From assembly GCA_903813345.2 (NCBI GenBank), contig CAIIXF020000007.1, forward strand, positions 21,811,564 through 21,875,563: a stretch of DNA of 64,000 nucleotides, written 5' to 3'. Positions 12,926 to 63,308 of the stretch are shown piece by piece; within the stretch, counting starts at the first letter, position 1; each line of letters starts with the position of its first letter. Under the pieces are notes generated by a model. It searched no databases. It saw nothing but the letters and a program-made list of their open reading frames with translations, and was not told where the DNA came from. The translations under genes were made by a program, and so were the position numbers. This stretch comes from Owenia fusiformis (taxonomy: Eukaryota; Annelida; Polychaeta; Sabellida; Oweniidae).

Positions 12926-13341
12926 CTTCACAAAATGAGAGCTGCATCCAATAGACTGAATATCCTGAGAATTCAGTCTATTGATCATCATGTCCCTCCT
13001 GTGGGAAAAACAGGAAATTTTGTGCACAAAACTATCAATTTTAGGAAGCTTCACTTCCCAAAAATAAACATTATAACAATTCAATTAAGTAGTAAGCTAC
13101 AATTAAATGCTATAAAAAGTAACACAGCATGTTGTCATTATACTAATGTTAAGGATCTAATCTGAGTAAAATTTATATCTTGCAGTATCTTGATAGACCC
13201 TCCTCAAAACAAGATGTTGATACTTTCTATGAACATTTTCCTCTGAAGGAGGGCCCCACATACAATTAGACTTCCCATTTGAAAAGTTTCATACATGTTC
13301 TTCACAATTTTTGCATAGGCATATTTTATGTTTCAGAGATT

Positions 13342-16300
13342 ATGACAATGCAGTATAACATCCCGACCATTACATACATTTCCATAGTAACACTGAGTCT
13401 GTTGGTCACTTTTATGCAGATAGAAACTGTATCAGGATCAGTGGGTGATAATTCACAACCGTTTATTGAATGTTTGGCAACCTGTCGAACACGATTATGC
13501 GGCATATCTGACATAAAATATGAGAACAAATTACCATTCTATATGAGATGGTTAAAATGGAACTGTGTGGATGATTGTAAATACCAGTGCATGTGGCCAA
13601 CTGTTGAATTTTTCAAGGATAGAGGTTGGCCAATTCCACAATTTCATGGAAAGGTAAGTCATAGTTTATCACGTCATTACAGGCAACATTTATCATGGCT
13701 AAGTAGCAGTTTCTGTAACAGCATTCTGCCATCAACATCTGTAACAACTGGTCACCCTTTTGTAATTATAACCAAGTCTTGGTCAGGTCATTTTGTCAGT
13801 TAATGTTAAACATATCTAGTCTCAGTCATATACTTCATTGCTTTATCATTAATATGTGAGAAAGATTGCCTTTATTTATAATGGCCTCTGAAAGGGCCAA
13901 ATGCATTGTTTGGTATTGTTTTGTATCATTGTATTTTTACATTTTATTCTAATTTGAATTTATGCACCCATTGTCTGCCAAGTTGAAATGCCAGAATAAA
14001 TGTAAATGTCTAATGTTCTCTAAGTTCTAGCTGCCAGTATTCACTACAGCAAGCTTTCCTCTATAAAGAACTCAAAAGTTATGACCCAAGAGGCTCCCCC
14101 AAAAAATGATACATCGTGAAAAAGTAATTTTAAAGGTTGCAATTATTTGTTGATATTTGTATATTATTAGATCAAAATTGAACATTTCGGGCCTATTGAT
14201 GAAAGCTGGCATGAAATGCATGTGTATTAATATTTATTTTCATTTTAATAGTGGCCTTTTATCAGGCTATTGGGAGTACAGGAACCTATGTCTACACTAT
14301 TCTCAATGTTGAATGGACTGAGCCATATAATTAATGTTCCAATATTTAGGAAACATGTACCTAACTCTGCTCCTTTGTATTATGTGTGGCAGTCATATTC
14401 CTTGGTGAGTGAGTGGGTAGAAAAAAGGTATTGATGACATATCCCTCTTGCCTTTATTCCCTATTACCAGTTAGTTGTAAGTTATTTAATCTCAACTTGC
14501 CACCCTCTTATATTTATGGGCATTGCTTTAATGCTTTATACTATTTGTATGTATTTATTATCCCATCGAACGAAGTTCGGAGGGATATAGGGAACGCCTC
14601 CGTCCGTCCGTACATACGTACGTACGTCCGTCCGTACGTACGTCCGTCCGTCCGGGCAATAACTCAAATACCGTTGGCCCGATTTTATTCATATTTTGTA
14701 CACATATACCTTATGGTATGAGGTTCCATATCCATCCGCCAAAAGGTATGACCCCTATATAGTCCATTTAAAAACTTGTGGTTTTGTTCTAAATAACGCC
14801 ATAGTTGGCTTCTAGGGTACCTAGTATGCCACTATTTGGTATCAAAATAAAGAGGAGGAGTTCAACTTTCATTTGAATTACGAAAATAGCGATGTATGTC
14901 AAAAATAGTTCCGACGTGAGCATGTTTACTACGCGTTTGCCCATCATATCAGAATTGAGGAAGTGGTAGCAAACGCGAGTCACAATAAATGGACGCTGAT
15001 ATCTCAAAAAGTAACCTGACTCCCTATAATTTGATGTAGATCAATCGAACCCCTATATGAACAGGTACATTTTGATATATAACACTATGGGGGGTAAGCG
15101 TTTTATAGTTGGTCACGAACGCCATATGTGCAAAGTATTGTTATGAATTTTCGAATTTGGTGTTGGATTACGGTACTCATACCTTATGGGGGTAGAAGTT
15201 CTGCTCGAAAGCCGATTTTCAAAATGGCCGCTCATTTAAAAATGGCGGCCATTTTAGTGCCGATTTTACAGTAATTTAGGTGCAATATGTAAAACTATAA
15301 TAGCAATATGTTTTAAATGTAAAAAAAATATATCATGTATATAGGACATTAATAAAGCTAGAAATGTAGATATTAAAAAAGCACATGGCAGCCATCTTGA
15401 AAAATGGCGGCCATTACTCGTTATTTTACGATTTTTGCTGTAACTCGAAAAGTAGTGGATCGATTTTGTTCATATTTGGTATGTGAATACTATAAGCATG
15501 GCACACTGTCTAATGACACTTTTGGTAGAAGGCGGCCATTTTAACTTATTTTACTAAAACTCGAAAAGAAGTGGACCGATTTTGTTCATATTTGGTATGT
15601 GAATAAGGATAAGCATGGCACACTGTCTAATGACACTTTTGGTAGAAGGCGGCCATTTTTTAAAATGGCCGCCATTTTAACGTATTTTGCTATAACTCGA
15701 AAAGTAGTGGAGCGATTTTGTTCATATTTGGTATGTGAATACTATAAGCATGGCACACTGTCTAATGAGACTTTTGGTAGAAGGCGGCCATTTTTCAAAA
15801 TGGCCGCCATTTTAACGTATTTTACTATAACTCCAAAAGTAGTGGAGCGATTTTGTTCATATTCGGTATGTGAATACTGTAAGCATGGCATTGTCTAATG
15901 AAACTTTTGGTACAAGGCGGCCATTTTGAAAAATGACGGACATTTTGAAAAATGGCTGCCATTTTTACATTATTTTACTTTAACTCGAAAAGTAGTGGAG
16001 CGATTTTGTTCATATTTGGTACGTGAATACGTATAAGCATGGCACACTGTCTATTGACACTTTTGGTAGAAGGCGGCAATTTGTTAAAATGGCCGCCATT
16101 TTAACGTATTTTGCTATAACTCGAAAAGTAGTGGAGCGATTTTGTTCATATTTGGTATGTGAATACTATAAGCATGGCACACTGTCTAATGAGACTTTTG
16201 GTAGAAGGCGGCCATTTTTCAAAATGGCCACCATTTTAACGTATTTTACTATAACTCGAAAAGTAGTAGAGCGATTTTGTTCATATTTGGTATGTGAGTA

Positions 16301-19300
16301 TTATAAGCATGGCACACTGTCTAATGACACTTTTGGTAGAAGGTGCCCCTTTTGAAAAATGTTCGATGGGATTCGCTACGCTTTGGCGTTGCCATTGTTC
16401 TGGTTAGGAAGTCCCATTGTTCAAGCACAGTGCAAGTGTATTTGATTCAAACTGTACCTAGAATACAGCTTGTGTCTTTTGTATCATAACATAAAGTAAA
16501 TATTGTTGCTTGTACCATTGTGTTATCATGGGATCCCTAATATTTATACCAATTCCCCCATTTATCCCCAATATTACATCAATTTTACATCCATGTTAAG
16601 ACATCCCTGTTTTTCAGTGGCTATTCACAAGATGCATCCATGAAGATACCAAAGTTTGACTAGTGAAAGTTGGGCTACAGATTCTATCATGTACTCCTCT
16701 CCTATCAGTTCAAAGTTACTCATGCTTAAATACACCATTGCACAAACCATTTTGAATTAATTTAAGACAGGCATCCCTGTTTTTCAGTGGCCATTCACAA
16801 GATGTTATGGCATTCAAGAACCTGCTTCAGTTGTATTTTCAATCCTCAATGCAATCACTCTCATCTACAATCTCTGGTGGTATCGTAAAAAGGTGGAAGA
16901 CAAAGCTCCATTATATAATATAGTTCATGTGGGAAATGTAGTAAGTGCTTCCTATAGTTAAGAATGACCTCTTAAATAGTATAAAAATGTCCCTGACTTA
17001 ATAGTTAGACTGTACTACACTGCACATGTATGTATGGTGCTATCTCATAATATTTCATACTAAATTCTACATTTAGGGTGTATTGTGAGTGATAAATGGT
17101 AATCTTGTTTACTGAAATAAAAATATTTTTCAGTAGTCCTTTTTTAATCCAGAAAAAAATCCCACTTTCAAAATGTTTTTCATAAACACAGAGGTTGTGT
17201 AGTAGTTGAAAAATGGTTAACTGTAGAATTCAGTGAGACAGTTTTGAGATGGTTCCTAGTATGACTCAAACTATTTGGATTCCCCATTGTTTTAGCTCTT
17301 GATTGAGTCAGTCTTTTATGTTAAAATACAAAAGAAATAGAAATAAATAAAAAGAGCAATTTTTTCATTAACCATATTACCATATTCTATGATTCTTTTT
17401 CAAACAATTTTACAAGACAACATCAAATTGATTTTGTTTATAGCCTAAATGCTTGCCATTAATATTGTTAGTCGTAAAATGATGATACATACATGTACAT
17501 GTATTTATTTTCTTATAAATTCTTTTCTAATTTGCCTTGCAAGGCATGGGTAAACACTTTGCGATAATCTGTTATTCTGTATCTAATAGAATTGTATTTT
17601 AACTTGTAGGTGTCTGTGAATGCCTGGGTCTGGTCTTCTGTCTTCCACACCAGGGACACTAGGATAACAGAGGTATGATTGACTTTTTGAGTTGGGAGGG
17701 GGGGGCAGAATCAATAAACTGTTATGGATAAGATAGGGAAAATCGTAAATGAGTATACTTGCACATAGCTAGGCAAGGTGTGTCCGATACCAGCCAATCC
17801 GAACACAGTATTTCACAATTTGCTGCAGTGCATTTTATCACCAATCACTGCATCCAAGGTCACTTGTTAAATAGTTGTCAAGGTGACAACTTGACTCTCC
17901 AGATTAAAATTGATAATTTGCCAACTTGACACTTGTAAAAGGTTTCACAACGTGTAAAAATAATTTAATTTCAAGACTCAATGCATTGTGGCTGCTTCAT
18001 TCCACTCAGGCGTGGTTTCCTAAACTTTGCAAAGATTTGGAAACAACGCCTTCAATGGATTGATTCAGCACAGAATGCACTGAGTCCACGGTATTAAACC
18101 CTCAAGTATAACATAATAGTTATCTTGTGTTTCAGATGCTGGACTATTTCTGTGCCATCTCTCTTGTCATTTACTCTGTCTTCATGCTGGCCTGCAGGTG
18201 AGTTGAATGTTATATATCATAACAGTGTTGTCCAAATGCTAAAATATCGCTTGTACGATTACCAGGACATTTTAGAATTCTGACCTGTAAACTGGAAAGA
18301 TACAGGAAAATGAGAAAAAATAAATTGAAAACTACTAAATTCATACACTATAAACATACAGTTGATGAATATGTATTTTACCTTTTTCCCATAAAAAGGC
18401 ATTTGCCCAGGCTATTTCATGCTTGAATGCAAATATGATTACATCCTTGACTTCAACATTAAAGCAAGTGGGTGCACCGAATTAAGATTTTGAAAGGTCT
18501 TATTTCCATCTTGCACCCACTTTAAAATCATGAACAAAAGTTATAGCTGATCATTTTATCTCTCCCATCTCACAATGCTGCAACTAATACAAACTTCAAT
18601 ACCTCAGCAGCTGTTGTTTCTACAAAATGCTTAGGCTACCTATTGTCACACAGTAGAAATGTTGTAATGACCCTCGGTTTCAAGTTGCTAAGTAACACAG
18701 CTATAGTAGCTATATTGGCTGGAGTGGTAGAGCATCATACTTTTGAGTGGAAGGTCCTGGATTCAATTCCCGCATGGGGCATTGAATTTAGCCTACTCTT
18801 TTCATGTCTGTATATATCTGGCTTGTAGCATTACAGCTCCTTAGAGGCACCCGCGGGTTGTTATAATATTAACAAATGTAACAGTTCTTGTACATATTTG
18901 TTTTTTAGAGTGTTTGGTACAGAGAGACCCCTGAAAGCATCTATCTGTGGACTGATTCTCTTCTACTTCTTTGTGTGGCATGTTCACTACTTGGCATATG
19001 TCAAATTTGACTATGGCTACAATATTAAAGCAACTGTATCAGTTGGTAAGTGTTGATGACTGCGTACAGAAGTAAACATCAGAAAAGTAACATGAAATGA
19101 AACACAATGTTTTGACTTCATCGACATCCTTTTTTCTCTAACTTAAATTTGCTTCCTTGTTTTTAACAAAAAAAGATAAAGAGACAAAAAGGTAGTTCTC
19201 AGTTTGATACAAATAACTCAATACAAACTAAAAGGCAGGAATGTAAACCTGATGCCAATTGTGATTGACCATTTCTCTTCTAAAGTTTCACCAGATTCTA

Positions 19301-22741: not shown

Positions 22742-25700
22742 CTACCATACAAATCCTAGTCGTTTTTGTGAAGCTTCACCATAAATATTTGACTTAGTTT
22801 CCTCAGTGGTGTCCCTTTGATAATTAGGCATCTGTACTCCAGACTGATCAGATGCCATATAACTGGGCCTGACCCCACCCTTTCCTTCAAACACAGGTCC
22901 CGCACCACCCCCTGCTCCAGCCTTGGCAGCCTTACGAAGAGGGATTGTATTACGTCCTCCTTTTTCACAATGATCAATAACACGTTTGGCATATTCTTGG
23001 AATTGCTGCTCCTCCACGGCCAATAGTTCCATATTTCTCTTGTCACGGGCCAGTTGCTCCTGCCGTGCTTTGTCATCCTTTACAAGTCGCTCATCCTGCA
23101 AGATAATAGAACATATAGGAAACATGGTTTTAACATTTTACATGTATCAGTGATCTCCTGATGTCACTTTTACCGGGGGCTCCCCCTACTTGAAACCAAA
23201 GGCCCCCCAGTTGGCACCCAGTTGGAATCTGCACTTCAACTTCTGATTTGAAAAATGAGTGAAGTAAGCACCTACACTGAGATATTGTGAGCGTAGCGAA
23301 TGCTGATTTTTTCGGACTTGAAATCTTGCAGCCAGTTGAAATTTTTTTTTGGGGAGAACACTGTGTATTGCTCACAGGGTTACATTAAGAGGCAGAGCAT
23401 ACAAGAATACCATGCTGCCATATCTTTACTGGCCAAGTACCTTCCAGTATGCTGAGATTGTCTCTTGTTTTTGAATCAAGATGTCTCTTGATTTGATTGG
23501 TCAATATTGCTTTGTAAATATGTTTGCACTTGTAAATATTTGTAAATACATTTTTATTTGTAAATATTCCCCATCATAATATGTTTGTTAGTCCGTGATA
23601 ACTCCAATACATATGAAAAACAACTAGGACCACCCATAAATCAATTACAGTAAAACCCGTTTTAATGAAAACCTCTCTCTAGTGAACACCTGTCTTAAGT
23701 GGACACCAAACTTGCAAATTACAAATTAGCCTCTCTGTAGTGAATGCCTACCAACACTGAACATTTTTTTCTTGGCAAAAAAATGTTCAATATACAAAAG
23801 TTTCACTGTACAGTAAAACCTGTCCGATGGAATACCTCTCTGTAGGGAAAACCTATGAACAAGGAATGCTTTTCAAAAGAACCGAATATTTTTCCATTGA
23901 CTTACATGTTAACGGACCCTCTCTGTAGGGAAAACTTGTGAACAGGGAACAAGGAACACTACTTTTTTGGGGCAAATTATGAAAATTCACCTGTGAACAA
24001 GGAATATGGAATATTGGTGACACTGTATATTCCATTATTTTTCAGAGGTGTGAAAGTCTTCAGCCAATATCTGAATATAAAAAGCTTAGATTAATATGAT
24101 TGAGATTAAGATAAGCCAATTGTTGACATGATGTAGCATCCCACCCACTGTTAATTACCCTGATTTATTTTAAAACTAATACTAATCTGTTTGTTACTTA
24201 TTATCATGACACCAATTCTTCCTTTCAAAAACCCAATTACATCAAATCAGTTGTGATAATCTAGGGACTGACACAATTGTTTTATGGAGATAACAGATAG
24301 TAAGTACACGGTCATGTTGAGCCAAATCTCTTTAAATATTTTACTGATCCAACTTCTAGATTATCAATGATATAAAATGGGGTTGCTGAAACTTGAAATT
24401 CAGTTCTTAGCAATATATCTCTACACATCATATCAATAATTACATCAACTAGACATCATCAGACACTAGAAGCAGCTAAAATCAACATGGGGAGAATGTA
24501 ACCAAGCATTTGTACAATCAATCAATATACAAATATGCTTATTCGGCAATTTTGAGTTTGCTGAAAGTGCGGCCCCTCTCTATAGGGAAAACCTCCGAAC
24601 AAGGAAACTTTCCTCCAGTCCCAAGAGCATTCCCTGTTCGCAGGTTTTACTGTATTTACAATTTAAAAACTTACATTTTGTTGGAAATGGAATTTGGCAA
24701 GTCCCTTTGCTTCTTCCAGCTTGCGCCTTCGTTTCTCCTCTTCATTTTGTCTGAAAACGTTATCAGCCTCCTTTTTGATTTTCAGCATTTCCATTTCCTT
24801 TACTCTCTCTTCTGCCTTCATATCTTCAATCTCCTTCATCTGTAAGCATGCAACGTAAGAGTTACTGATGATTAGGCTATATGAGAATTTATCAAAAGAT
24901 AAATGCGAAATTGAGATTGGGATGGGCTAAAAATTAGTTTAAAGCATGGAAAAATTGGATCCCTTTTTATAAAAGGCCAACTTTTATATTGAGGCCCATT
25001 TCTCTTGAAAAATATAAAATATATTTTGTAAATAAAATAATTATTTTCAAACTTGCAGTGAATGCAAAACATATTTGATGTTATGGTAATACAATTATAA
25101 GAGAATCATACCTGTTGATATCTGTGGTCTCCCATCTCTTTCATTGCCTTCATCAACTTGGCATTCTTCCTTTCTTCTTCCTCCATTCTTGCTTTCTCCT
25201 TCTCTTCCAAGGCATTCCTTATTCGCTCATCCTCATCGTCCTTCTTCTGTTGTTGTTGGGCAAAAAGTTTTTCACGGATTCTCTCCAAACGTTCCTGTTT
25301 TTCATTGTGAAGCATCTTTTCTTTCTGTGTTCTCAATTTCATCATTTTCCGTTTAGCTGCAGCAAATATTCTACATTCCTCATCTTCCTCCTGTAACCAT
25401 AGCAATATTGAAAGTCAGCATGGTTTTATATTGTTGCAATGCTGTTACAAATAGACAGGGGCTTGGTCTGTTACATAAAAAATCTAACCATAATTGTAAA
25501 ATCGGACAAGGCAAATGCAAATCATCACATGAAAACCTCAACATAGAATTGGATATCTTGAGGTTTGGAAACAAATAACACCTGACATGTACATATACTT
25601 AGACTAATATTCCGAGCAATATTGGATCTACATCAAGGCTTGATTTACAACTTAAGTTTGTCAATCACTGACATAATGAAAACCAATCATAAATTGTGGT

Positions 25701-28700
25701 TCACAAGCTACTGACCTCCTCTTGCAGTCTATGGATTTCCTTCATTTTTCGTACATCTCCAATCCTCTTGACGTTATCTTGCATCATGCCTTTCCTTTCA
25801 TCAAACCTAATCTGTTCAAGACGTTGCTTCTCTAAAGCATATTGAGCAGCCAGTGCCTTCAGTTCTTCACCCTCAGCTCTGTCTAAATCTTTGTCCCTCC
25901 AACCCTCTTTCAGATGTTCTTTCACCCTGTTGCAAAAATAAAATAAAATTAAGAATATGTTCGCTTTTTTATTGTTGTACAACATTGAAGATTAGATAGA
26001 GTTTTAGGTGTTTGTGTTCTTCAAATTTTTCAACTACAGATTTCGGGACAGCTATTATGGTGGGGAGCTAAAGGACAACGATTGGGGTATGGGACTTTTG
26101 TATGATGAGGGACTATAGGATAACCAATGTAGTGGAAATGTTATGACAGCTATTATAGGAGGGGACTTTAAAACAACCATTATGGTAGGGGAGCTATAGA
26201 ACATTAGAACAATCATTATGATGGGAACTATGGAATAACCATTATTGTGGGAACTTCAAGACAACCACTATGGTGAGAGCTATATTGAATATCAGGATAA
26301 CCATTATGGTTAGGAGTGAACTATGGGATAATCATTATAGTGGGAGCTATAGAATATCAGAATAACCATAATGGTCAATAGCTAAAGAACAGCCATTATG
26401 GTGGAGGACTACAGGACAACCATTAAAGGACAACTGAAATAACTTTTCTCAACTTGCAGCTACAAAAATGCGGTTTTCTCCATTGTAAGCCCACCGTAGA
26501 GTTCTTGCGATAGCCATCATAAAATAAATGTTAGATAACTGCTAACGGTCATAGATAACAAAATAAAACTAACTGATAAATCAAATTGGCCCCCACGTGA
26601 TTAGTATAAGTCATAATACAAAATATAGCTTTGGTTTACTGGTTCCATAGTAATCACAACGTCACGGCAACCATAGGATTGTTGTGTAAACTGATCTAAT
26701 GGACCAAAACGGTCCACGTGGGGGCCAGTGAGAGATCACGTGGGGGCCAATAACGTCACAACCAATTCGAATATTGCTTATTAAGCAGCTATAACGATCG
26801 TTAGAGTGAAATAGTTTTCACACTACTGATTAGAAAACATGTCCAAATACATCTATCAAAAAATTATATTGATTCCTTTAGGTTAAAAATACCATTTCAT
26901 ATCTGCTTTAATATGGTGGGGGACTAAAGGACAACCTTTATGGTGGAGGACTACAGGGCAACCATTATGGTAAGGAAGGAGCTATATAACAACCATTAAT
27001 ATGGTGGGGGACTAAAGGACAACCATTATGTTGTGGGACTATAGGACAACCAATATGGTGAGGAGATATAGATTAGAACAACCATTATTATAGGGGATTA
27101 TTAAGTGTTTTAACCTCTTGAATACCCAGAGTGACAAATGAAATAAGACTGGTGCCCAGAGGGACGAGAAAATCCGTAACAAAATTTTTCACAAAAATTG
27201 CTCTCATTTGAACAATTTTTATCCAATTTACACAAAAATTGTTTTAAAACGTGTAGAAATGATCTCTGCCGTCCAATTTTACTAAGCTGAGCATCTAAAG
27301 TTGTATAGGTATGTAATAAAATGTCAAAAGGTGGCAAAAAATGAAAAATTCTCTGGTTTCATGCCAATTTTAGAGCCTGGGATTCAAGAGGTTAATATTA
27401 AAATAATAAATAAAATAAAAAAAGATTAAAAAATTTCTTGTCAAAAACATTAGAACAGACCCTGCACTTTTATAATTGTGTGTTTTTATCAACTGTAATC
27501 ATCATTTATAAATTACATGTATTTATGGTGGGGAGATATAGAACATCCCCATTATGGTGTGGAATACTTGATTTTTAGAAGACCAAATTGTGGGTACTAA
27601 TGGCAACCATTATTGTGGGGATTATTAGACAACCAAATTTTGGGGACTATAAGACAACCATTATGGTGGGGGAGTACTATTACCCCTTTGATCTATAGCC
27701 TAATTAACAGACTTGGTCTCAAGTAGGGAAGTTAATAAATATTATATTTCATAAAAATAAAGTGAAGTCCAATGAATCCTAAATGTGTTTCTTGGCCTCC
27801 TCCTATGTTTTATGCCTTCAGGGCCCTCTATTTCAGCAGACTCGGTACACTATTTTATTTGATAAAATCACATCTTTATATAAAATAACACTTACTGTGC
27901 TTTCTGGAACATTGCATTTTTTCTTGTTGCATCAATTCTAATTTGTGCTTTTCTTTGGTCTTCAAGGACACCTTCTTCATAATCTTTCTGTGCCTTTTCT
28001 AACCAGGCCTTATCCTTGCCCTCATTTGCCTTTTCTTTAAGTGCTTTCAGTTCCAGTTGGGCTTCTCTCTCTTTTAGAACTTCAGTTAACATAAGAGCTC
28101 CCTATAAATGTATATTGGATAAATGCTCATTTTTAAAAATCAAAATACCAAATTAGCCTTTGGTTGATAAAGTGCTGTTATGTTTGTCACTTTCTTGCAG
28201 ATCGAGGTTTCGTTAAATATACATGTATGTATGTCGACATGTTCTCTTTTTTACTGTGAATAGGTTAAAGTTAGAATATACAATATAATCATTGATTCGT
28301 CTTTGAAAGATCAACTGTTCAAATTATGTAAGTAAAGTACAATCTAGAATCATTATATTTCATATTCAGTCATCACTGCCTTCAAAACTGAGCAAACAAA
28401 AATGCAACATCTTTGTCACTTTATATTTCTAATGTCAGTACTCACATGGAATCCTTTTACTCTGTCTGTTTGGTAATACTGCTGTGTTTTTGCTTTTTCA
28501 ATAGCCTCTTTTCTCTTTTGTGACTGGAATGTTGCCTCTTCTAGATCTATTTGTTTCCTTTCCTCCTCTTCCTTTTCTTCTCTTATCTTCCTTGCTTCTA
28601 ATTTCCGTTGCCTTTGACCCTAATAATAATCATACATATTTGAAGATGAGAACCACGAAGTACCAGAGATACCAGTAAATAGACACTCACCACTGGGAAG

Positions 28701-31167
28701 TCAACAGCTGTCCAACTGAGGAACAAAAAACAGATTTTATAAGATATCATTCATTAATGACAAAGGGGTTTTGAAATATGTGACTGGGCAAATACATGTA
28801 TGTTTACATAAATTAAATACATGAAAAACCCTTAAAGGCCCCATATAAAGTTTAAACCACTTTGGCTTATATTGTAGTCTTACCCAATGTTATCAAAGTG
28901 TGATATGTGAAACTTTTTTTTTTAATTTCAAAAAGTGGTTTTTGATAGACTTTTTGTTCCAAAATTTGTGAATTTATTTAAAACCAACTTTTAGAGGTCA
29001 CTCATATCTTCTAATTATCCACAATTCATACCAATGCATAGCATGCATCCTCTCGTGTTTTTTGCCGAAAAAATTAAGAAAATCGGTTCATAAATAAGCG
29101 AGAAATGAACTTATCAGTGCATGAAAATGGTTCTGAGAAAAATGCATTTCAAAATTTTAGTTCTCATAGAAACCAATGGTACAATGATATCTAAAACATA
29201 ATTTATTCTTCCTTTTAACCTGGTTAGACAATCAACATTGGTTTTTTATGAAAGTCTAACATATTTAGAAAAAAATTGACATCGAAAAAAAAATTTCAAT
29301 TTTTTTCAAAAAGTTTTTGGTACCTTAGTGACATCACTAATGTTTCAAAATATTTTTGATATGCTAAAACATTGAAGTGGCCCATTAAATATGGCATTTT
29401 ATTATTGAAATAGTGTGTCCTTTGTTCAACCTTTGCATTGGTGTTAAAAAGATAATCTTTTTTGAAATGCATTAAGAAATATTTGATGATTAAGAAATTT
29501 CAACTTTTTTTGAAAAATGGCGGGAAATTTGAATATTTGAGAAATGAAATGCTCACAACTTTTTTTTCAAAAAAATGTTTTTGTTCAAAAATCTCTAAAA
29601 TCACTTTTTAAGTCCTGACAAATAGTAAATGAATGATAAAAAAATATTTTCAAACTTTAGACGGGGACTTTAAACTTACAGCTATAGTATTGCCCCAATT
29701 TTTCACTGTATCTTTTGAGCGTTGTCTCAGTGCTTCTCTCTCCTCCCTAAGTTTTGCTATCCTCTGTTCTTCTATAACATTTCTATTCAGACTGTTTTGA
29801 ATTCTCTGCCAGTCTTTGCCAGTAAGAACAGTGACTTCTCTCAGGTCTGTGCCATTTTTCAGCTGCATCCCTAATGGGATTTCTGTTGGGAGAGTTTCAT
29901 ATGGACCTGGTTTGGGTTGGGCTGAAATAAATATTGATTAAAATTGATAATGTATGCCTGAAAGCAAGGGATCTGTCCATATGTTAGCAACAATTACACT
30001 GTAAATTGTGTGAGTTGCTTTAATGAGAACAGAAATAGCTTATCTTGTTCCAACACCATCCTCTTTGTAGAGATAGTCTTGGAACGAGATAAGAAATAGC
30101 AACTGTAAACTTTGAAGTACATCAAGTCAAGAGATATAAAAGATTTCTCTGATCTAGTCTTTACAAGGTTCAAGTAAGTATAAATCTGTCAACAAAAATA
30201 AGGCATCAATGGACCATACACTGTTGGGTTATTAAAATTTGTGGCCTCTTGTTAGTGGGGCCTACTCAACTTACTTTGTACATAATTCTGAATTAGTCAC
30301 AAATTCTAATTCTAACATTATCTATTTTGTGACTTGAGGATAAGTTTATTTCTTAAAAAATGACCATGGAGTATATGAACATGTAGTCTTAAACACTGAC
30401 TCTCTGTGCATTTCCACCTGTGATGATGAGTATTGAGAAAATGGAATCAATACCAGGCCTGTCAACTGTCCCGCAATTTGCGTATTTGTCACGCATTTGC
30501 TGAAGAATTTGAAGTCACGCCAGTTTTTTTCGCCAGCGAAAAATTTGAGGTGATAAAAGTTTAGCAAAGGTGCTCAAACTTTGGCCAAAAGTTGGCCAAA
30601 GGTGTTCAAAATTTGGACAAAAGTGTTCAGATTTGGACTTCGGTGTCCAACATTTGTAAGTCACTCATATTAGGTGGTCCCAAGTTGACAGCCCTGCAAT
30701 ACGCTAGGCCTAAATGTCATTTTGTATCCATATTTTTGTATGGACAGTCGATTGTCGTTACAAAACTTAACTATAGAGTGTACTAAATCATATGTAATAG
30801 AAAGGTATATTCCCAACACAGTGAGCAGGCCCGTAGCCATGCAGGGCCTGGCTCCCCCCCCCCCCCCCGCCCCCTGGCCAGAGCTTCAAGCCCCCCCCCC
30901 CCCCCCCCCTTCAAGTTCCTGTGAGAAATACTTTCAAAATCATGCAGTTTTACACCATTCTGAGCACTTTTTGCATGTTTTTTTGTCAAAACTGTCAAAA
31001 AGTTGGAGACTAGACTAACAATATGTCACGTATTTAGATCTACTGTTGACTTGAAAAATTGACTGAGAATGAGATTGAGAATCTCGGTGAGATAAGATTT
31101 TTTAGACCCAAGCAGTAACCTTACCTTTCTTTGTCCCCTTCCGCCTCCCATGCATTACCGTCGCCAT
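22742..31167 (-). CDS. CFAP210: CFAP210 (CCDC173), ciliary TPH-domain coiled-coil protein, eight exons
   Basis: Exons in transcription order are 31167-31125, 29921-29680, 28619-28446, 28101-27896, 25926-25716, 25390-25112, 24839-24675 and 23095-22742. All join in frame through GT-AG introns and give 557 residues (human about 552). The family is an inner protein of ciliary doublet microtubules. Diagnostic features are the N-terminal LREVTVLTGKDWQRIQNSLN block (about residues 39-58) and the YYQTDRVKGFHGALMLTEVL motif at the exon 3/4 join. A long Glu/Lys/Arg-rich coiled coil of the trichoplein type follows. The C-terminus is GPVFEGKGGVRPSYMASD with a final RLGFVW, close to the human ending. The start ATG lies 43 coding bases before the first intron. 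The gene is head to head with PHOSPHO2. Several transposons and a minisatellite fill its introns. Confidence 0.94.
23646..24656. mobile_element. Cluster of CAGTAAAACC-ended elements (pogo/Tigger-like MITEs) in a CFAP210 intron
   Basis: TACAGTAAAACC-type ends occur at about 23647 and 23811, and the inverse GGTTTTACTGTA ends at about 24654. GTTTCACTGTA at about 23805 and GACACTGTATA at about 24020 look like further right ends. The internal text ACCTCTCT.TAG.GAA.ACC..GAACA is repeated in each. TA flanks and CAGT ends match the pogo/Tigger style, so this looks like two or three abutting non-autonomous copies. Confidence 0.6.
26045..27690. repeat. Degenerate minisatellite in CFAP210 intron 4, interrupted by insertions
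   Basis: A unit close to GGACTATAGGACAACCATTA followed by TGGTGGG is repeated with decay at 26045-26440, 26905-27100 and 27530-27690. The gaps are occupied by a CACGTGGGGGCC-containing insertion (about 26440-26905) and by the TTAA element at 27114-27391. Unit length varies, about 25-45 bp. Confidence 0.7.
27114..27391. mobile_element. 278-bp piggyBac-like MITE
   Basis: The ends CCTCTTGAATACCCAG and CTGGGATTCAAGAGG are inverted repeats with one mismatch. TTAA flanks both sides (27110-27113 and 27392-27395). TTAA target sites with CC..GG ends fit non-autonomous piggyBac elements. It is inserted within the intronic minisatellite. The ORF at 27110-27337 (-) lies inside it and is not a gene. Confidence 0.75.
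28836..29669 (-). mobile_element. TTAA-target transposon, copy 2, abutting a CFAP210 splice donor
   Basis: This is the inverted full-length relative of the element at 1803-2612. It runs from AGGCCCCATATAAAGTTTAA to the inverse of AGTCCCCGTCTAAAGTTTGA. TTAA duplications are at 28832-28835 and 29670-29673. In the gene's direction the intron begins GTAAG (29679-29675), so the TTAA starts within the donor neighbourhood and the element body begins about 10 bp into the intron. Confidence 0.88.
30830..30920 (+). repeat. Poly-C-bearing repeat fragment
   Basis: GGCCCGTAGCCATGCAGGGC is followed by two long C runs (15 and 22 bases). Similar 'GGGCGTAGCCAG' fragments with G runs are at 38816-38880. The proline and glycine ORFs here (30722-31018 on +, 30783-30998 on -) come from the homopolymers. 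Confidence 0.6.
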
Positions 31168-31512
31168 ACTGACGTGTACCACACTATAGTGTAAAGTTTT
31201 ATGCTAGAAAATTGGAACGAAATAATCCAGTATACGCTCAAAAGTAACAAAATTAGGAAATTTTTGCGAGCACTTTTCTGGCCAAAATCGTCAAGGCAAA
31301 CAGTGTGTTGCTACAGTACGTGACGTCATAACTAGGTCATAGTCTCGTTTTGAAACCACACAAAAATCATATTATCGCCCATAAATGTTGTTACAAAATT
31401 TTACTTTTGTTTCATAATCGAGGATATGCGATGCTTGTAAGCTTCATGAGACACACATGTAATTGAGAAAATTGTATTAGATGCTCAGGAACATTTCGCA
31501 GCGGTTGAATGT
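31168..31512. promoter_or_regulatory. Shared divergent promoter region of CFAP210 and PHOSPHO2
   Basis: The CFAP210 ATG ends at 31167 on the minus strand. A first non-coding PHOSPHO2 exon, ending at a GTAAGT donor at about 31513, probably begins near 31470. Between them lies a perfect cAMP-response element TGACGTCA (31321-31328). Just before it, GTTGCTAC (31307-31314) resembles half of an RFX X-box, which would suit a ciliary gene. No TATA box is obvious. The CRE is read directly; promoter function is inferred from gene layout. Confidence 0.6.
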
Positions 31513-31867
31513 AAGTATTTTGTTACTTCACCTCAGTTTTTGTATAGATTTTACAGCCCATATTTCATTTTAGATCTCAGATCTAATATTGTTTTCGGAG
31601 AAATCAAAAGATCATTGTGCAAAAATATGTGGAAAAATATATTCCTATTGTACATAAATGACATTTGTGTATCTTGGATTGCTTCTAAAGTGGGGGACAA
31701 AAATAAATCTCAACCCTCAAAAGTTGTCACAATGATGAGCTAAATTCTAAGTTTCGTGTCTCAAACTCACCCAAGCGGTAGAAAAATAATTCCCATTCAC
31801 TTTAAGTAGCACAATAAATGAATCCAAAGCTTCATACCTGCAAATGATGGATAAATCCCTACCAAAT

Positions 31868-32052
31868 CATGGGCGTAGCGCTATTTTTCTAAGTAGTACG
31901 CCACCACCATGGTAACAAGAGTTGAGTGAATCAAAAAACGAGCATTCAGGGGGGTCTGGGGGACAAATTTTGAAAATTGGTTGTATTTGGAGTGAATTTG
32001 CAACCATCTGGTACGCCTGTGCATACCCAGCGTACCGGGCGTTACGCCCATG
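31868..32052. mobile_element. Short palindromic-ended repeat (CATGGGCGTAGC family)
   Basis: It starts CATGGGCGTAGCG and ends CGTTACGCCCATG. The inner right part has GCGTACCGGGCG and the left has GTACGCCACCACC. This looks like a MITE in PHOSPHO2's first intron. The two minus-strand ORFs at 31867-32084 lie in it. Confidence 0.45.
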
Positions 32053-32100
32053 CAAATCAAACTAATGTTTTCATGAATCGCCATGTTTGTGATCCAAGGA

Positions 32101-32217
32101 GGATTGACTCCCAGAATGCAACATCAGGTGACCTTATTTACTCGTGACAGATTTCAAAATGACTGAACGGCATTTTGAAAGCTGACACGTGTCATGTTGC
32201 ATTCTGGGAGCCAATCC
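32101..32217. promoter_or_regulatory. Inverted pair of CCCAGAATGCA motifs
   Basis: GGATTGACTCCCAGAATGCA at 32101 is mirrored by the inverse near 32193-32217. CCCAGAATGC is the core of the ZNF143/Staf binding site in animals. The pair may be a regulatory element downstream of the shared promoter, or simply the ends of a small MITE. Confidence 0.35.
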
Positions 32218-32322
32218 ACATTGCGGCGTAGGCGGGCTCTAAAATCACCTCAACATTTGAAGAGTCGGCATTAACATGTGAATTCCACTTCAAAATTTTA
32301 AGTTCTTATTTGTCATTATAGA

Positions 32323-32377
32323 CAAGAATTCCACAATATCTGGACTTACTAGGATGGAGAAAACTGAATACACTGAG
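32323..32377 (+). CDS. Candidate PHOSPHO2 upstream exon with in-frame ATG
   Basis: The segment is bounded by CATTATAG and GTAAGAA. Its ATG reads MEKTEYTE and would join in phase to the PHOSPHO2 start codon exon at 34878. Either it is 5' UTR with an alternative start, or a chance exon-like segment. No transcript evidence is available here. Confidence 0.45.
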
Positions 32378-33169
32378 GTAAGAATTTATTACATGTGCGA
32401 CAGCATGTAATTTCCATGCTTTTGTAATTCTTTATGTCCCCCACTGTACTTTGGCTAATAAAGTATGTGGCCTCTTATATCTTGATGCTTCTCCGCCATA
32501 GGCATGGATGTCTAATATACGTTCTTCCAACAAGATAGATCATCTATTAGATGCCAATTACAGGACTGGAAACAAGATTCAAGTATTTTTCAAGACCGCC
32601 GACTCTCTTTGGGCTATTTATCCCTATTGACTCAGTTGTTCATATAAATTTATGTACCTTAGATGCTTTGTAATCTACGTAGATAGAAAATATTGTTTCC
32701 TAAATTGTTCTGAAATGCGATAATTAATACTAAATGTGCTCTGAACAGGTCGACTGACTTAAAAGATGGGCATGGAACAAGGTCACGTGAGTGACATGAC
32801 CCATTCTTTATCTTATTGTGTAATAGCAAACTATGAGAATGGTTTACCCGCCAGAAATTAACATAATTATTTGAAGCTATTTTAGAAAATTTTGAAACAG
32901 CCATCTTGGTAATATTGATTATGTCAGATCACCATTGGTCAAGGGTCATTCATCTTGCCATTTGCTTGGCCGTATCTTACCAGTCGACAAAAAACAATGA
33001 AATCACATTAAAAATAAAATGTACACTTTAAAATTGAGGCTTATTGAATATGAAAAGACTCTATTGAATACAGCTGTGCAAGTTACAGTCACCAAGATGA
33101 GCTAATTTGGGAGAAAAAATTACAAGAGGGCATAGGCTTATTGCACAAAAAAAACTAAATAATCTGAAA

Positions 33170-33975
33170 TATTTAAATGTCATTCATGTACAATATGAAT
33201 ATTCTTTTCCATATATTATTTAATGGGTTTCCTGATTTCTTATTTTTGGGGTTCTACTGACGATATAGTGAAACAGTGAAATGGGCTGTAGACAAGTAGA
33301 CTACAGTAAAATTTTAAATGTTTTGAAGTAGGGCTACAGTAAAATTTTAATTGTAAAAATAAGCAATCAAATGACTATATTGCAACAGTATATGAAAAAG
33401 AGAAACATATGTAGAAGTCCCAACTTTTGCATATTTCAGATAGTTATAAATAATGTGCAGCAAAGCTGTGACCTTCTGTAATTTAGGGAGTTTCAGCCAT
33501 GTTAATTAGCTTTGAAAATAACATGGCAGAGAAGTATCAAAATATAAGAGGCCACACATATGATAGCCAAACTACAAAACAAACTAGAATATACAAAACT
33601 TAAGACATGTACCATAAATGTTTCTATTTTTACATATTCTGTTTCAATATGGTCCTTTAATTACTTATTTTTTAGATTCAAAGTAGTTCCAAACATTTAA
33701 AATTTTACTGTAGACTACTTTGAATTTAAAAAATAAGCAAACAAATGACTATATTGCAACAGAATATAAAGAAACGAAACATATGTACACGTCCTAACTT
33801 TTGTATATTTCAGATAGTTTATATGTATAATGTGCAGCAAAGCTGTGGCCTTATGTAATTTAAGGAGTTTCATCTATGTTAATTTTTTACGAAAATAACA
33901 TGGCAGAGAAGCAACAAAATATAAGAGGCCACAGATATGATAGCTAAACTACAAAACAAACTAAAATATACAAAA
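33170..33975. repeat. Tandem palindromic repeat copies in PHOSPHO2 intron
   Basis: Two tandem copies occur at about 33420-33600 and 33785-33975. Each contains GTGCAGCAAAGCTGTG, TTTCAGCCATGTTAATT..AAAATAACATGGCAGAGAAG and TAAGAGGCCACA. The CATGTTA..TAACATG core forms a hairpin. Segment 33175-33300 matches the right half of the element at 45860-46252. Confidence 0.6.
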
Positions 33976-34088
33976 GTTAGAACATGTAAATGTTTCTACT
34001 TTTACATGGTCCTTTGATTGCTTATTTTTTAGATTCAAAGTACTTACAAACATTTAAAGTTTTACTGTAGCCTAAATCAAGTACACAC

Positions 34089-34506
34089 TAGTGTTGTCGC
34101 GATTAATCGATACATCGCGATATACATCGCCAAAGCTGGTTCTGGCGATGCATCGATGTCTGAAACAAAACATCGATGTTTTTAAAAAACTAAAGATCGC
34201 CCTTTCTTATCTTATTTTGACGCAAATTGCTTACCTTTTTTCATGTCTTATTTCATTTTCAAATGTTTTCTGATATTCTTTCGCTTTAAAACTGTTTTAG
34301 CTAGTCGAAATGAACCATTAATCTAAAAAAATTACTTTACTTTCATTTCACCGTTACTATGTTCCCGGATGTAATTTTTTCTGTTCGATATTTTAGTGCA
34401 TAAGCGTTCGGTATTTCAGTGCACTTTTCTCGAACTTGCATCGATGTTTACTACTGAAAATTGCCGATGCATCGATGTACGATTATGGCACATCGCGACA
34501 ACACTA
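34089..34506. mobile_element. 418-bp hAT-type MITE with perfect 8-bp TSD
   Basis: Terminal inverted repeats TAGTGTTGTCGCGAT and ATCGCGACAACACTA are flanked by GTACACAC on both sides (34081-34088 and 34507-34514). Inside are repeated CATCGATGT motifs in both orientations. TAGTGTTG-type ends plus an 8-bp duplication are characteristic of hAT elements. The perfect TSD suggests a fairly recent insertion into PHOSPHO2's intron. Confidence 0.88.
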
Positions 34507-34877
34507 GTACACACTTTGGGCAAGCTCAAATTATGATCTATACTTTCTTCTGTAAACTAATGATTTGGCCTTGCCCCATAACTGCATACTGACTGTGATC
34601 ACCTAGGACGGAATCCTAATGGTCTGAATACAATTGGTCAGAATTCCAATTGTCTGAATCCCATTGGTACAAATCCTAATCGTCCAAATCCCATTAGTCA
34701 GGATCCCACACTTTTTTCCAATGTATTCCATCTACGTCAGAGACCTATTATAGGAGTATTGAGTTCTTACTTATGCCCATCTGCCCATTCTCAAACTTTA
34801 AAACCTCACCGTCAGCTCTATAGTATTCAGGTGAATCTGGCAACCATTCTAGTAAGAATCAATTCATTTATTTTCAG

Positions 34878-35606
34878 ATGTCTGCAATTCAAAAACGACT
34901 TGTGGCATTTGACTTTGACCACACCATCATTGACGAAAACAGTGACTTGTATGTGCGAAAACTTTTACCTGGTGGTAAGGTACCAGAGGAAATTAAATCA
35001 ATCTACAGCGACAGAGGCTGGACAAAATATATGGGCGCCATCTTTAGGAAGTTATATGAGAATGGCTCAACAAAACAAGATTTTTTAAACTGCATGAACG
35101 AATTAGAGTTTACTTCTGGAATGAAGGAACTTTTAGAATACCTTTCAGAAAAAGAGGATGAGGTGATAATCATATCTGACTCAAATTCCTTCTTTATTGA
35201 TTGCATCTTGAAGGAATCTGGAATGCTTCCTCACATCACCAAAGTATTTACTAATCCTGCAAAGTTTGATTCGGATGGGTGTTTATTGGTTGATTACTAC
35301 CATACACAAGACTGGTGTGATTTGAGTACTGTGAATCTTTGTAAGGGTCATATCCTAGATGCTTATGTCCAAGAGCGTAAGGAAGCAGGTGTGACATTCA
35401 AACAAGTCATCTATGTTGGTGATGGTCACAATGATCTGTGCCCTTCTCTTAGACTAAAATCCAGTGATTTTGTATGTCCACGAAAGGGATATAGACTCTT
35501 GAAGGCAATACGAAATATAAAAGATGAAACATCCCAACCTTTACTTGCAAAGGTCATAGAATGGGACAATGGGAATGATATATTGAATGTTCTTCAATCT
35601 GAGTGA
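34878..35606 (+). CDS. PHOSPHO2: PHOSPHO2, HAD-family pyridoxal phosphate phosphatase
   Basis: One coding exon encodes 242 residues (human about 241). The acceptor TTTTCAG directly precedes the ATG, so the 5' UTR lies in upstream exons. HAD motifs are complete: motif I DFDHT near residue 13 with the nucleophile Asp, motif II VIIISDSNS near residue 98, and motif III VYVGDGHNDLCP-like (IYVGDGHND) near residue 180. PHOSPHO1/2 enzymes are magnesium-dependent small-molecule phosphatases; PHOSPHO2 is reported to act on pyridoxal 5'-phosphate. A likely upstream exon at about 32323-32377 (TTATAG before, GTAAGA after) contains an ATG in frame with this exon, which would add MEKTEYTE to the N-terminus. 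A 5' exon ending at about 31513 completes the model. Confidence 0.94.
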   Translation: MSAIQKRLVAFDFDHTIIDENSDLYVRKLLPGGKVPEEIKSIYSDRGWTKYMGAIFRKLYENGSTKQDFLNCMNELEFTSGMKELLEYLSEKEDEVIIISDSNSFFIDCILKESGMLPHITKVFTNPAKFDSDGCLLVDYYHTQDWCDLSTVNLCKGHILDAYVQERKEAGVTFKQVIYVGDGHNDLCPSLRLKSSDFVCPRKGYRLLKAIRNIKDETSQPLLAKVIEWDNGNDILNVLQSE

Positions 35607-60219: not shown

Positions 60220-61650
60220 TTAGACAATTTCTATTATCGTACAATTTGGACTCTCAACATTTCTAAAATTGTGCAGGAAAAAGTGGCCTAATCTAATGCG
60301 ATTTAGAAGGATTTCACTCTTTCGTGATAATTCTAGCTTAGATGTAGGTAATGGTAAAACGTTGTCTCGGAAATGTTTTTTAACATTCCTTTTAAAACTA
60401 GAAATTTTTTTGTTTTCTTTTAGATAATATGGGAGCTTTTCCCATTCGAGCATTGCTTTTATTATTGGCGATTTAGAAAAGGAGCCAGATGATCTTGGAA
60501 TATTAAATTCTCTGACATTTCTTAGGTTTATATCTTGAACAGGATTTCTATGTTGGTCAAAAATTCGTTGGAGATAAGAAGGGACTGTTTTGTTTTTTAC
60601 TTTGTGCATAAGATTTAAGTATTTTTCATTTCTTCTGGTTAAAAGATCATTCCAGTTTAGGTATTTAAATAATTTAATTTTTGAAGTTCCCTGAATGCAT
60701 CCACTTACTAGCAATGCAGCTCTGAAATGTACTTGGTCAAGTTTTGCAAGATCATATTTGGCTGCTTTTTCGAATAAAATACTTCCGAAGTATAAAGGAC
60801 AAGTACATTTTTCAAGATGTTTGGATCTAACTTGATTCAACATTGTATTACATTTATCAATTATTTCGTGTATACGTGAGCTAAAATTTAAGTGTTCATC
60901 TAATAACACTCCTAGGTGTTTATGATTACATGTTCTACTGATCTTTCCATTGCTTAAAGAAACAAAAGGGTATTTTAACTTTTTCCTTCTTGACCCCTTA
61001 AAAATAAATTCTACACTTTTGGAAGGTTTAAAATTGGATTTCCATTTAAGGGACCATAGTGAAAGTCTGTCGAGGTCTTACTGTACATTTTTGTGAGGTT
61101 CGGAAATATTTTTACTTCTGTCACATGGAAAGAAAATAGAGCTATCATCAGCATACAGGTATAATTGACTATAATTCAGAGCTTCATCAATATCATTTAC
61201 ATAAAGGAGGAAGCAAAGTGGTCCAATTATTGGATCCTTGAGGTATTGAGCTGTTTATGAAGCCATGAGGGGACACTTTTGAGAATTCCCCATTTACTTT
61301 TACTTGGAGACATCTATTTGACAAGTATGATTTTATTAAGTCAATAATGATTTCAGAAAAGCCATATGATTTTAGTTTCTTTAACAGTAGATAATGAGAG
61401 ACTCCGTCATCACAGTTATTGTCTATGTATTCATCAATCATATTAACAATTGTTATTAATTGTTTTTCAGTACTATGTCCTGGAAGAATACAGATTGATT
61501 TTGATAAAAAAGATTGTTTTCAGTCACATATTTGAACATATTGTTGTATATCAAACGTTCAAATATTTTTGAAAAGTTACTTAATAATGTAATTGGTCTA
61601 TAATTTTGCTGGACACACTTGGAACCTTTGTTTTTGAAAATTGGAACAAC
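60220..61650 (-). pseudogene. Degenerate LINE reverse transcriptase ORF2
   Basis: An RT palm is recognisable in pieces, with at least two frame changes: after the NYRPI block and around IPQGS. The downstream maturation/RNA-binding-like domain (60220-60909) keeps one open frame from MLLDEHLNFSSRIHEI to a stop. No intact endonuclease domain is seen upstream, although NKRDKLYRKYK-like text remains near 62200. Confidence 0.75.
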
Positions 61651-63308
61651 AATCCCAAGTTTCCAAGAACTTGGAAATGTATTAAACTCTAAAATCTTTT
61701 TAAAAAGTCAAATAATGGTTGGTCTATGCTATCACAACACATTTTCAACAATTTATTTGTGATTCCATCGGGGCCACCCTGTTTTGTTGTATTAAGGTCA
61801 CGCAAAATTTTATTAATATACTGTCTTGAAAAATCGATTCTTTCTAGACTTTTCTGCGTTTGAACCGGAATCTCTGGAAAATCATGTTCAACAAAATTAT
61901 GATGAAATAGTCAAAAATTGTTGCAAAAGAAAATCTACATTTTCTTTATTGTTTTTTGCCAAAGTATCATCTTTAGACAACATAGGGATATCTGAACAAA
62001 AAAATTTTCCCAAGTAACTTTTTAATTGTAATCCAGTAGAATTTACTATTTGATGTATTTGTTTCTAAATTACTGCACACTGTTTCGTGATAGGATAATT
62101 TCGCTTTTTGTTATTGCATTATTCACAATAATTGTGTTTTGATTTTTTCATAATTTTCGACCGTATGTTCAGTTTTATATTTCCGGTAAAGTTTATCGCG
62201 CTTATTTATTGAGCTCTTGACTTCTTTATTAAGCCAAGGCATATCTTTACTATTTTGAACTTTTATTTTCTTTGGAATGTGATCACTAAATATTGTTAAA
62301 ACAGTGAATGTAAAGAGTTCAGTGATATTGTCTACATCTGTTAAGGCAAAGATATTTTCCCAGTTATACTGTGATATAGCTCTATTTAGATGGAATACAT
62401 TACAATCATGGTATTGCCAAATACATATTCAGTTTTTAGCCAGTTTGGCAAATTTCAGTTAGATTTAAACTTTTTTATATGCAACAAGTGTTGTGTTGTT
62501 TGAAATATTTTTATTGACTGGTAACACATAAACAGTAAGTATTGTGATGTCAGAGTGTTGTATGGTCGAGGTTTGCAGGTCAATTTGATGAAACATTGTG
62601 GAAGATGGGATTGGTGTGGACCCTACTCCATATGGACAATGCACCTGCCCACAGATCTCAAAATGTTCAGAAAAAAATATCCCTGAATCTCAAAGTTGAG
62701 CCATTGGCCAATGCATCATATTGTCCAGATCTGCCCACATTTGACTTATTTATTCCTATTCTGCTGTACTTACTACTATAGAGAAGGGACGCGGGTCTAT
62801 TGACATTGATGAAATAAACAACCCGTGCAACTGCATCTTGCTACCATGTCAGAGAATGGATTTAGCCTTGTCTCACAATCTTAAGTTAAGAGGATTAGGA
62901 ATTGTGTACATGTAGAACGTTATGGAACCTATGTAGAGGGACCCTGTAGAATGAATGTGGCATGAATACCACGTGGTGATGATAAAATATTCAAAATCAA
63001 CTATGGCATAACAAAATGGGGTAATCCATGACCATAATGGTTTGTTTTGTTCAGCCTGCATTCAACTGCGTTGCATGTTAAACAAGCTAAAATAGCTTCA
63101 GAATGTTTGACGTAATGTCGGTCCCGGGGTACCTATACCTCCTTCACGGAAACAAAGATATATCAAAATATATTACATGTTTTGTTTTCAAATCTTGAGA
63201 GTTGATAGGTAATTGAATGATGTATCACTGGTAAGAAAATCGAAGGTATTGGTCTATAAAAAGCATCCGTGTAAAAAAGCGTCCATTACTTATTGATCAA
63301 CCCTCGTA

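What the first reader, a model, noticed from the sequence alone, without database searches (positions are those of the whole stretch)
22742..35606. CFAP210-PHOSPHO2 head-to-head pair: deep conserved microsynteny
A ciliary microtubule protein gene and a HAD phosphatase gene diverge from one short promoter here. From memory, CCDC173/CFAP210 and PHOSPHO2 are also adjacent and divergent in human (2q31.1). An unrelated function with a retained shared promoter across bilaterians suggests regulatory constraint, such as co-expression in ciliated cells or an essential bidirectional promoter.
Basis: partly seen in the sequence, partly recalled or inferred. Interest (0 to 1): 0.75.

Follow-up and report, generated by a model that had tools for sequence, protein, structure and literature searches.

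The report
Divergent CFAP210 and PHOSPHO gene pair
A gene for a protein inside cilia and a gene for a phosphatase stand back to back in this animal genome, probably as they do in humans, which looks like one more old divergent gene pair rather than a new kind of thing.

Summary
The pair is real. CFAP210 (8 coding exons, - strand, 557 aa) and a single-exon PHOSPHO phosphatase (+ strand, 242 aa) are divergent neighbours; no gene was recognised between them, and each was found once in the 498 Mb genome. The best-scoring solved CFAP210 is the sea urchin one, so the host is probably an echinoderm or close relative. "One short promoter" is not shown: the start codons lie 3,710 bp apart. At least 2,523 bp of that is dispersed repeat, and a strong splice acceptor abuts the PHOSPHO ATG, so PHOSPHO probably has a 5'UTR intron. 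One candidate donor (31510) would put its leader within 343 bp of the CFAP210 ATG, but other, partly stronger donors further off are not excluded. Genes that share a 1-Mb chicken interval with this pair are spread over 21.5 Mb of the same host chromosome, so the pair stayed adjacent while its neighbourhood was reshuffled. Human head-to-head adjacency is recalled; other invertebrates could not be tested. Ancestral divergent pairs are known by the hundred in chordates. One paper cites a phylogenetic link of PHOSPHO1/2 to cilia, which makes "unrelated function" doubtful. New member of a known kind.

The parts
22742..23095 (-). CFAP210 coding exon 8 with stop codon
   Evidence: query residues 440-557 matched at 99%
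24675..24839 (-). CFAP210 coding exon 7
   Evidence: GT-AG boundaries
25112..25390 (-). CFAP210 coding exon 6
   Evidence: GT-AG boundaries
25716..25926 (-). CFAP210 coding exon 5
   Evidence: GT-AG boundaries
27896..28101 (-). CFAP210 coding exon 4
   Evidence: GT-AG boundaries
28446..28619 (-). CFAP210 coding exon 3
   Evidence: GT-AG boundaries
29680..29921 (-). CFAP210 coding exon 2
   Evidence: GT-AG boundaries
31125..31167 (-). CFAP210 coding exon 1 with ATG (43 bp; inferred from frame, donor AAG|GTAAGG and similarity of the N-terminus to 8snb_3N from residue 4)
31168..31510 (.). candidate shared promoter and PHOSPHO 5' leader; holds one palindromic CRE TGACGTCA at 31321-31328
   Evidence: 31100-31560 has one genomic match, itself; CRE expected 0.003 times here, ten motif types plus the X-box tried; inferred, no 5' end mapped
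31511..34877 (+). candidate PHOSPHO 5'UTR intron: acceptor TTTATTTTCAG ending at 34877 is strong; the donor at 31510/31511 is one of several candidates (32010, 32127, 32377, 32786 score as high or higher); largely dispersed repeats
   Evidence: inferred
34878..35606 (+). PHOSPHO (PHOSPHO1/2-type HAD phosphatase) coding sequence, 242 aa, single exon
   Evidence: PF06888 E 2e-73; only genomic match reported

Best explanation
CFAP210 and PHOSPHO are an ancient divergent gene pair, inherited as neighbours from at least the common ancestor of this animal and vertebrates. PHOSPHO most likely starts with a non-coding first exon close upstream of CFAP210 (its donor at 31510, or failing that at one of the donors up to 32786), so that a promoter beside the CFAP210 ATG fires both ways, and splices over an intron swollen by transposons to the single coding exon at 34878. 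The pair probably stays together because a break between the genes would cut the promoter or leader that they share; use of both genes in ciliated cells is a plausible added reason. Shown: gene identities, strands, single genomic matches, repeat-filled gap, a strong acceptor at the PHOSPHO ATG, shared chromosome with other 2q31-type genes. Inferred: first exon, bidirectional firing, selection. Recalled: human head-to-head arrangement.
For: Gene models and homology; single genomic places. By a rough matrix of my own, 67 of 6,721 AG sites in the window score as high as the acceptor that abuts the PHOSPHO ATG. In 34507-34860 the only donors scoring 4.5 or more (34830, 34851) would leave introns of 47 and 26 bp, so a spliced leader must come from further upstream; all other candidates of that score lie at 33327 or before, within 2.2 kb of the CFAP210 ATG. 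The donor at 31510 lies in DNA with no other genomic match and scores like CFAP210's exon-7 donor. At least 2,523 of the 3,710 bp gap matches dispersed repeats. SPC25, BBS5, GORASP and an RRM_3 (SSB-type) domain lie on C7 at 5.3, 15.4, 17.3 and 26.8 Mb, the pair at 21.8 Mb, whereas chicken has genes of these names with CCDC173L and PHOSPHO2 in one 1-Mb window. Two loci placed at random on C7 would lie within 3.7 kb and be divergent with probability about 5e-5.
Against: No transcript or CAGE data. The 31510 donor (7.7-7.8) is not the best in the gap: 32377 (10.4) and 32127 (8.6) in repeats, and 34830 (8.9), 32786 (8.6) and 32010 (7.8) outside the mapped repeats score as high or higher; 57 of 3,510 + strand GT sites of the window score 7.8 or more. 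No RFX X-box above background: one site of 13/14 at 34831, which makes 2 of the 4 strand counts of 13 in the window; none of 14. The window holds 3 exact CREs against 0.5 expected, so the one at 31321 is not peculiar to the pair. Human adjacency was not confirmed from a record. HAT1 and DCAF17, 2 of 6 markers, are on C1; the RRM_3 match is weak (E 1.1e-4) and could be a LARP7-type gene (LARP7 from recall). In PMC10729543 Phospho1, not Phospho2, is named among the abundant transcripts.
Confidence: 0.6

Rival explanations
1. Neutral retention: the genes are adjacent only because no break has happened to fall between them; shared regulation is not selected. (Not fully exclusive with a shared promoter.)
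For: Divergent pairs are common: 25% of neighbouring genes in amphioxus are in bidirectional promoters, with 372 putatively ancestral pairs in chordates. Chromosome-scale linkage is conserved here too. No ciliary promoter motif above background was found.
Against: Other genes of the same chicken 1-Mb interval have scattered over 21.5 Mb of C7 (16.6 Mb without the weak RRM_3 match), so local order on this chromosome is not generally kept. The finding was picked because it is conserved, which weakens this argument.
Confidence: 0.25
2. PHOSPHO has its own promoter, either in 34507-34877 downstream of the mapped repeats or within the repeat-rich middle, so in this species the promoter is no longer shared (disentangled).
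For: 3.7 kb separates the start codons; 34507-34877 is not repeat; the highest X-box-like score of the scanned region (13/14, 34831-34844) lies there; the strongest donor of the gap (32377) lies inside a repeat.
Against: A strong acceptor abuts the ATG, and donors in 34507-34860 would leave introns of 47 bp or less, so a start there needs an unspliced leader.
Confidence: 0.2
3. The adjacency arose separately in this lineage and in vertebrates.
For: None found; not excluded, since intermediate genomes were not searched.
Against: Chance of random close divergent placement on one chromosome is about 5e-5, and the chromosome-scale linkage is shared as well.
Confidence: 0.02

Closest known systems
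Human PHOSPHO2-CFAP210 (CCDC173) locus, 2q31.1
   Same: Same two genes; PHOSPHO2 on + strand (PMC2568002 Table 1, passages seen); divergent arrangement from recall.
   Different: In human PHOSPHO2 shares 5' exons and promoter with KLHL23; here no Kelch domain was found among the 150 longest frames outside 22.7-35.7 kb, though short exons would be missed. One PHOSPHO match here; vertebrates have PHOSPHO1 and PHOSPHO2.
Ancestral bidirectional-promoter pairs of chordates (PMC6292497; passages seen)
   Same: Divergent neighbours retained since before vertebrates.
   Different: That set was defined by CAGE or microsynteny; whether it holds this pair could not be checked (supplements not readable here).
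Divergently paired / head-to-head genes of human (PMC3815023 abstract and introduction; PMC4089025 abstract)
   Same: About 10% of genes; members of a pair tend to take part in different processes (PMC3815023 abstract).
   Different: Head-to-head pairs have start sites within 1 kb (PMC4089025); here the start codons are 3.7 kb apart and start sites unknown.

Membership tests
CFAP210 (CCDC173), microtubule inner protein | Full-length similarity to CFAP210 chains of solved doublet microtubules | tested here: met
   8snb_3N E 1.1e-149, 7ung_o E 2.2e-71, 7rro_o E 1.2e-68; TPH domain PF13868 E 1.3e-16
CFAP210 (CCDC173), microtubule inner protein | Presence in the doublet microtubule lumen | not testable with these tools
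   needs proteomics or cryo-EM of the species
PHOSPHO1/PHOSPHO2 phosphatases | PF06888 over its whole length, with HAD DxDxT motif | tested here: met
   PF06888 positions 2-231 of 234, E 2e-73; DFDHT at residues 12-16 of the translation, motif named from recall
PHOSPHO1/PHOSPHO2 phosphatases | Which vertebrate paralogue it is closer to | not tested
   single PHOSPHO match in the genome, so presumed co-orthologue of both
Bidirectional promoter pair | Divergent neighbours with no gene between | tested here: met
   Pfam-based, so a gene without a Pfam domain or with only short exons could be missed
Bidirectional promoter pair | Transcription start sites within about 1 kb | tested here: inconclusive
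   start codons 3,710 bp apart; a leader ending at 31510 would meet it, one ending at 32786 need not; no RNA data
Ancestral (deep) microsyntenic pair | Same adjacency and orientation in distant animals | not testable with these tools
   no other animal genome held; human adjacency by recall; papers place both genes in one human deletion and one chicken interval

The most novel reading that the evidence does not exclude
PHOSPHO is an ancestral part of the ciliary gene programme: the CFAP210-PHOSPHO bidirectional promoter has coupled a doublet-microtubule protein to a phosphatase that supplies or clears phosphate, phosphocholine/phosphoethanolamine or pyridoxal phosphate in ciliated cells since early deuterostomes or before, and the vertebrate bone phosphatase PHOSPHO1 arose when a duplicate escaped that promoter. 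(Substrates and the role of PHOSPHO1 are recalled.)
Probability: 0.2. Interest if true: 0.6.

Novelty: new member of a known kind. Interest (0 to 1): 0.4.

Why it matters
If the pair is as old as it looks, it is a compact natural test of why divergent pairs persist, and it gives the little-studied PHOSPHO2 a testable link to cilia. It also suggests that the human 2q31 neighbourhood joins two ancestral chromosomes, the pair lying on the one without the Hox-like cluster.

Tried and rejected
Hox-paralogon idea (PHOSPHO1 near HOXB and PHOSPHO2 near HOXD in human, from recall): not borne out, the run of 12 homeobox matches taken as the Hox cluster is on C1 (17.97-18.96 Mb), the pair on C7 (150 of 218 homeobox candidates were scored). 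RFX X-box as ciliary signature: not above background. Mitochondrial COX1 to name the species: no match in the assembly. PHOSPHO against PDB sequences: only weak matches, best 2fea_A at E 0.0085. PHOSPHO relatives in viral contigs, tried in case they held animal DNA: none. tRNA genes in the window: none.

Papers on the pair: the searches listed none that, from titles and the passages opened, treats the pair as a pair; one search listed 20 of 458 papers, and PMC8809958 and PMC7515907 were not opened. May et al. 2021 (10.1083/jcb.202007207) is not held and is known here only as cited in PMC10729543. PMC3704668 lists CCDC173 and C2orf77 as separate entries although I recall them as one gene.

Rows dropped: the repeat map used the non-self matches at about E 1e-10 or better, with intervals slightly trimmed; weaker and within-locus ones were left out, and one search scored 40 of 5,850 candidates, so the repeat share is a lower bound. 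Whole-window gene survey: the 150 longest stop-to-stop frames outside 22.7-35.7 kb (59 aa and up), against 335 frames of 50 aa or more in the whole window.

Full report
What is there. The window lies at C7:21811564-21875563 of a 498 Mb assembly of 525 contigs. Of the contigs measured, C1 (62.2 Mb), C7 (39.8), C11 (37.3) and C12 (36.7) are of chromosome scale and C13, C14 and C20 are below 0.7 Mb. On the - strand eight exons with GT-AG introns give a 557-residue protein. phmmer against PDB chains matches it to CFAP210: 8snb_3N at 503 bits (E 1.1e-149), then 9cpc_2B at 249 bits, human 7ung_o at 245, bovine 7rro_o at 236 (named CCDC173/CFAP210), 8i7r_Y at 226, and Chlamydomonas 6u42_4Y and Tetrahymena 8g2z_1P at about 81. 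PMC10973386 (passages seen) names 8SNB as sea urchin and gives the species of 7UNG, 7RRO, 6U42 and 8G2Z. A score twice that of the next chain suggests an echinoderm or close relative; the species was not identified, COX1 having no match in the assembly.

On the + strand one open exon, 34878-35606, encodes a 242-residue HAD phosphatase matching PF06888 at E 2e-73. It is the only match of that family reported in the genome. All 7 CFAP210 matches reported are at this locus, so both genes are single-copy as far as these searches reach.

The gap. Two facts favour a modified form. First, the PHOSPHO ATG directly follows ATCAATTCATTTATTTTCAG, an acceptor that a rough matrix of mine scores 8.9, against 3.1-9.8 for CFAP210's seven own acceptors; 67 of 6,721 AG sites of the window score as high. 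The coding exon is therefore probably preceded by a 5'UTR intron. Second, at least 2,523 of the 3,710 bp match dispersed repeats, including one family at 34087-34506 with copies of 89-94% identity and one at 31686-31868 plus 32053-32448 that is contiguous in other copies. The stretch 31100-31560 next to CFAP210 has no other match in the genome.

Where the leader exon ends is open. Donors in 34507-34860 would leave introns of 47 bp or less, so a spliced leader must end further upstream; all remaining candidates of score 4.5 or more lie between 31436 and 33327. In the unique stretch beside CFAP210 the best is AAT|GTAAGT at 31510 (7.7-7.8, equal to CFAP210's exon-7 donor), which would give a shared promoter of at most 343 bp. 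But 32010 (7.8), 32127 (8.6), 32377 (10.4) and 32786 (8.6) score as high or higher; the second and third lie in mapped repeats, the first in what looks like a nested insertion, the last in a 52-bp island between repeats. I prefer 31510 for its place in unique DNA, as an inference. The stretch 31168-31510 holds one palindromic CRE, TGACGTCA at 31321 (0.003 expected there; ten motif types tried; the window has 3 against 0.5 expected), which is only suggestive. RFX X-boxes were not above background.

Neighbourhood. Pfam on the 150 longest frames outside the pair shows a Per1-like gene (frames at 13.3-13.8 and 18.8-19.1 kb among five matching, +), a sulfotransferase (43.8-45.0 kb, -), a transporter, a Reeler domain and a rhodopsin-type receptor (57.3-58.4 kb, -). 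Nothing recognisable as one of the human neighbours known to me (PPIG, KLHL23, SSB, METTL5, FASTKD1, BBS5) showed up, though genes made of short exons could be missed. On the chromosome scale, SPC25 (5.3 Mb), BBS5 (15.4), GORASP (17.3) and an RRM_3 domain of SSB type (26.8, weak, E 1.1e-4) lie on the same contig as the pair (21.8 Mb), while HAT1 (20.7) and DCAF17 (15.5) lie on C1 with the Hox-like cluster. C7 is 8.0% of the genome; 4 or more of 6 by chance has probability 5e-4. In chicken a single 1-Mb window on chromosome 7 holds SPC25, BBS5, SSB, GORASP2, DCAF17, CCDC173L and PHOSPHO2 (PMC10976558, passages seen). So the vertebrate block seems to draw on two ancestral chromosomes, and its C7 genes are spread over 21.5 Mb here (16.6 Mb without the weak match) while this pair stayed together. 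That is evidence that the pair resists separation beyond shared linkage, weakened by the fact that it was noticed because it is conserved.

Comparison with what is known. The human arrangement is recalled; the papers seen give PHOSPHO2 on the + strand sharing 5' exons with KLHL23 (PMC2568002, passages seen) and both genes in one deletion (PMC3704668, passages seen). Divergent pairs are ordinary: about 10% of genes (PMC4089025 abstract; PMC3815023 introduction), 25% of neighbouring genes in amphioxus, and 372 putatively ancestral pairs in chordates, most of which were lost in vertebrates (PMC6292497, passages seen). This pair is best filed as another such pair, provisionally, since start sites and other animals were not testable.

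A possible functional reason. PMC10729543 (passages seen) reports, citing May et al. 2021 (not held), that PHOSPHO1 and PHOSPHO2 are co-conserved with PALD1, suggesting local phosphate production in cilia; its own transcript data name Phospho1, not Phospho2, as abundant. If the link holds, the two genes are not of unrelated function, and shared expression in ciliated cells becomes a concrete hypothesis. No co-expression data were available here.

Verdict. Observation partly confirmed; interpretation partly supported; ordinary in kind, with a worthwhile testable link between PHOSPHO and cilia.

Noticed in passing
G000 C7 and C1 (outside the window): Markers of the human 2q31 block fall on two host chromosomes: SPC25, BBS5, GORASP, an RRM_3 (SSB-type) domain and the pair on C7; HAT1, DCAF17 and a run of 12 homeobox matches (17.97-18.96 Mb, all + strand, taken as the Hox cluster) on C1. 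The human block looks like a fusion of two ancestral linkage groups.
   Followed up: partly
window 34087-34506: A 420-bp dispersed element with terminal inverted repeats visible by eye (ACTAGTGTTGTCGCGAT...), copies of 89-94% identity on several chromosomes; looks like a MITE.
   Followed up: partly
window 31686-32448: A repeat family that is contiguous elsewhere is interrupted here at 31869-32052, which looks like a nested insertion.
   Followed up: no
window 13270-19053: Five frames match Per1-like family PF04080 (two placed at 13270-13800 and 18829-19053): probably a PGAP3-like gene (name recalled) on the + strand, tail to tail with CFAP210.
   Followed up: no
window 60223-62428 (-): Frames resembling a LINE-type reverse transcriptase by eye; no Pfam match for 60223-61077 or 62126-62428.
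   Followed up: no
window 34597-34708: A repeat with 15-bp spacing (six register copies of a 37-nt reference) just upstream of the PHOSPHO coding exon.
   Followed up: no
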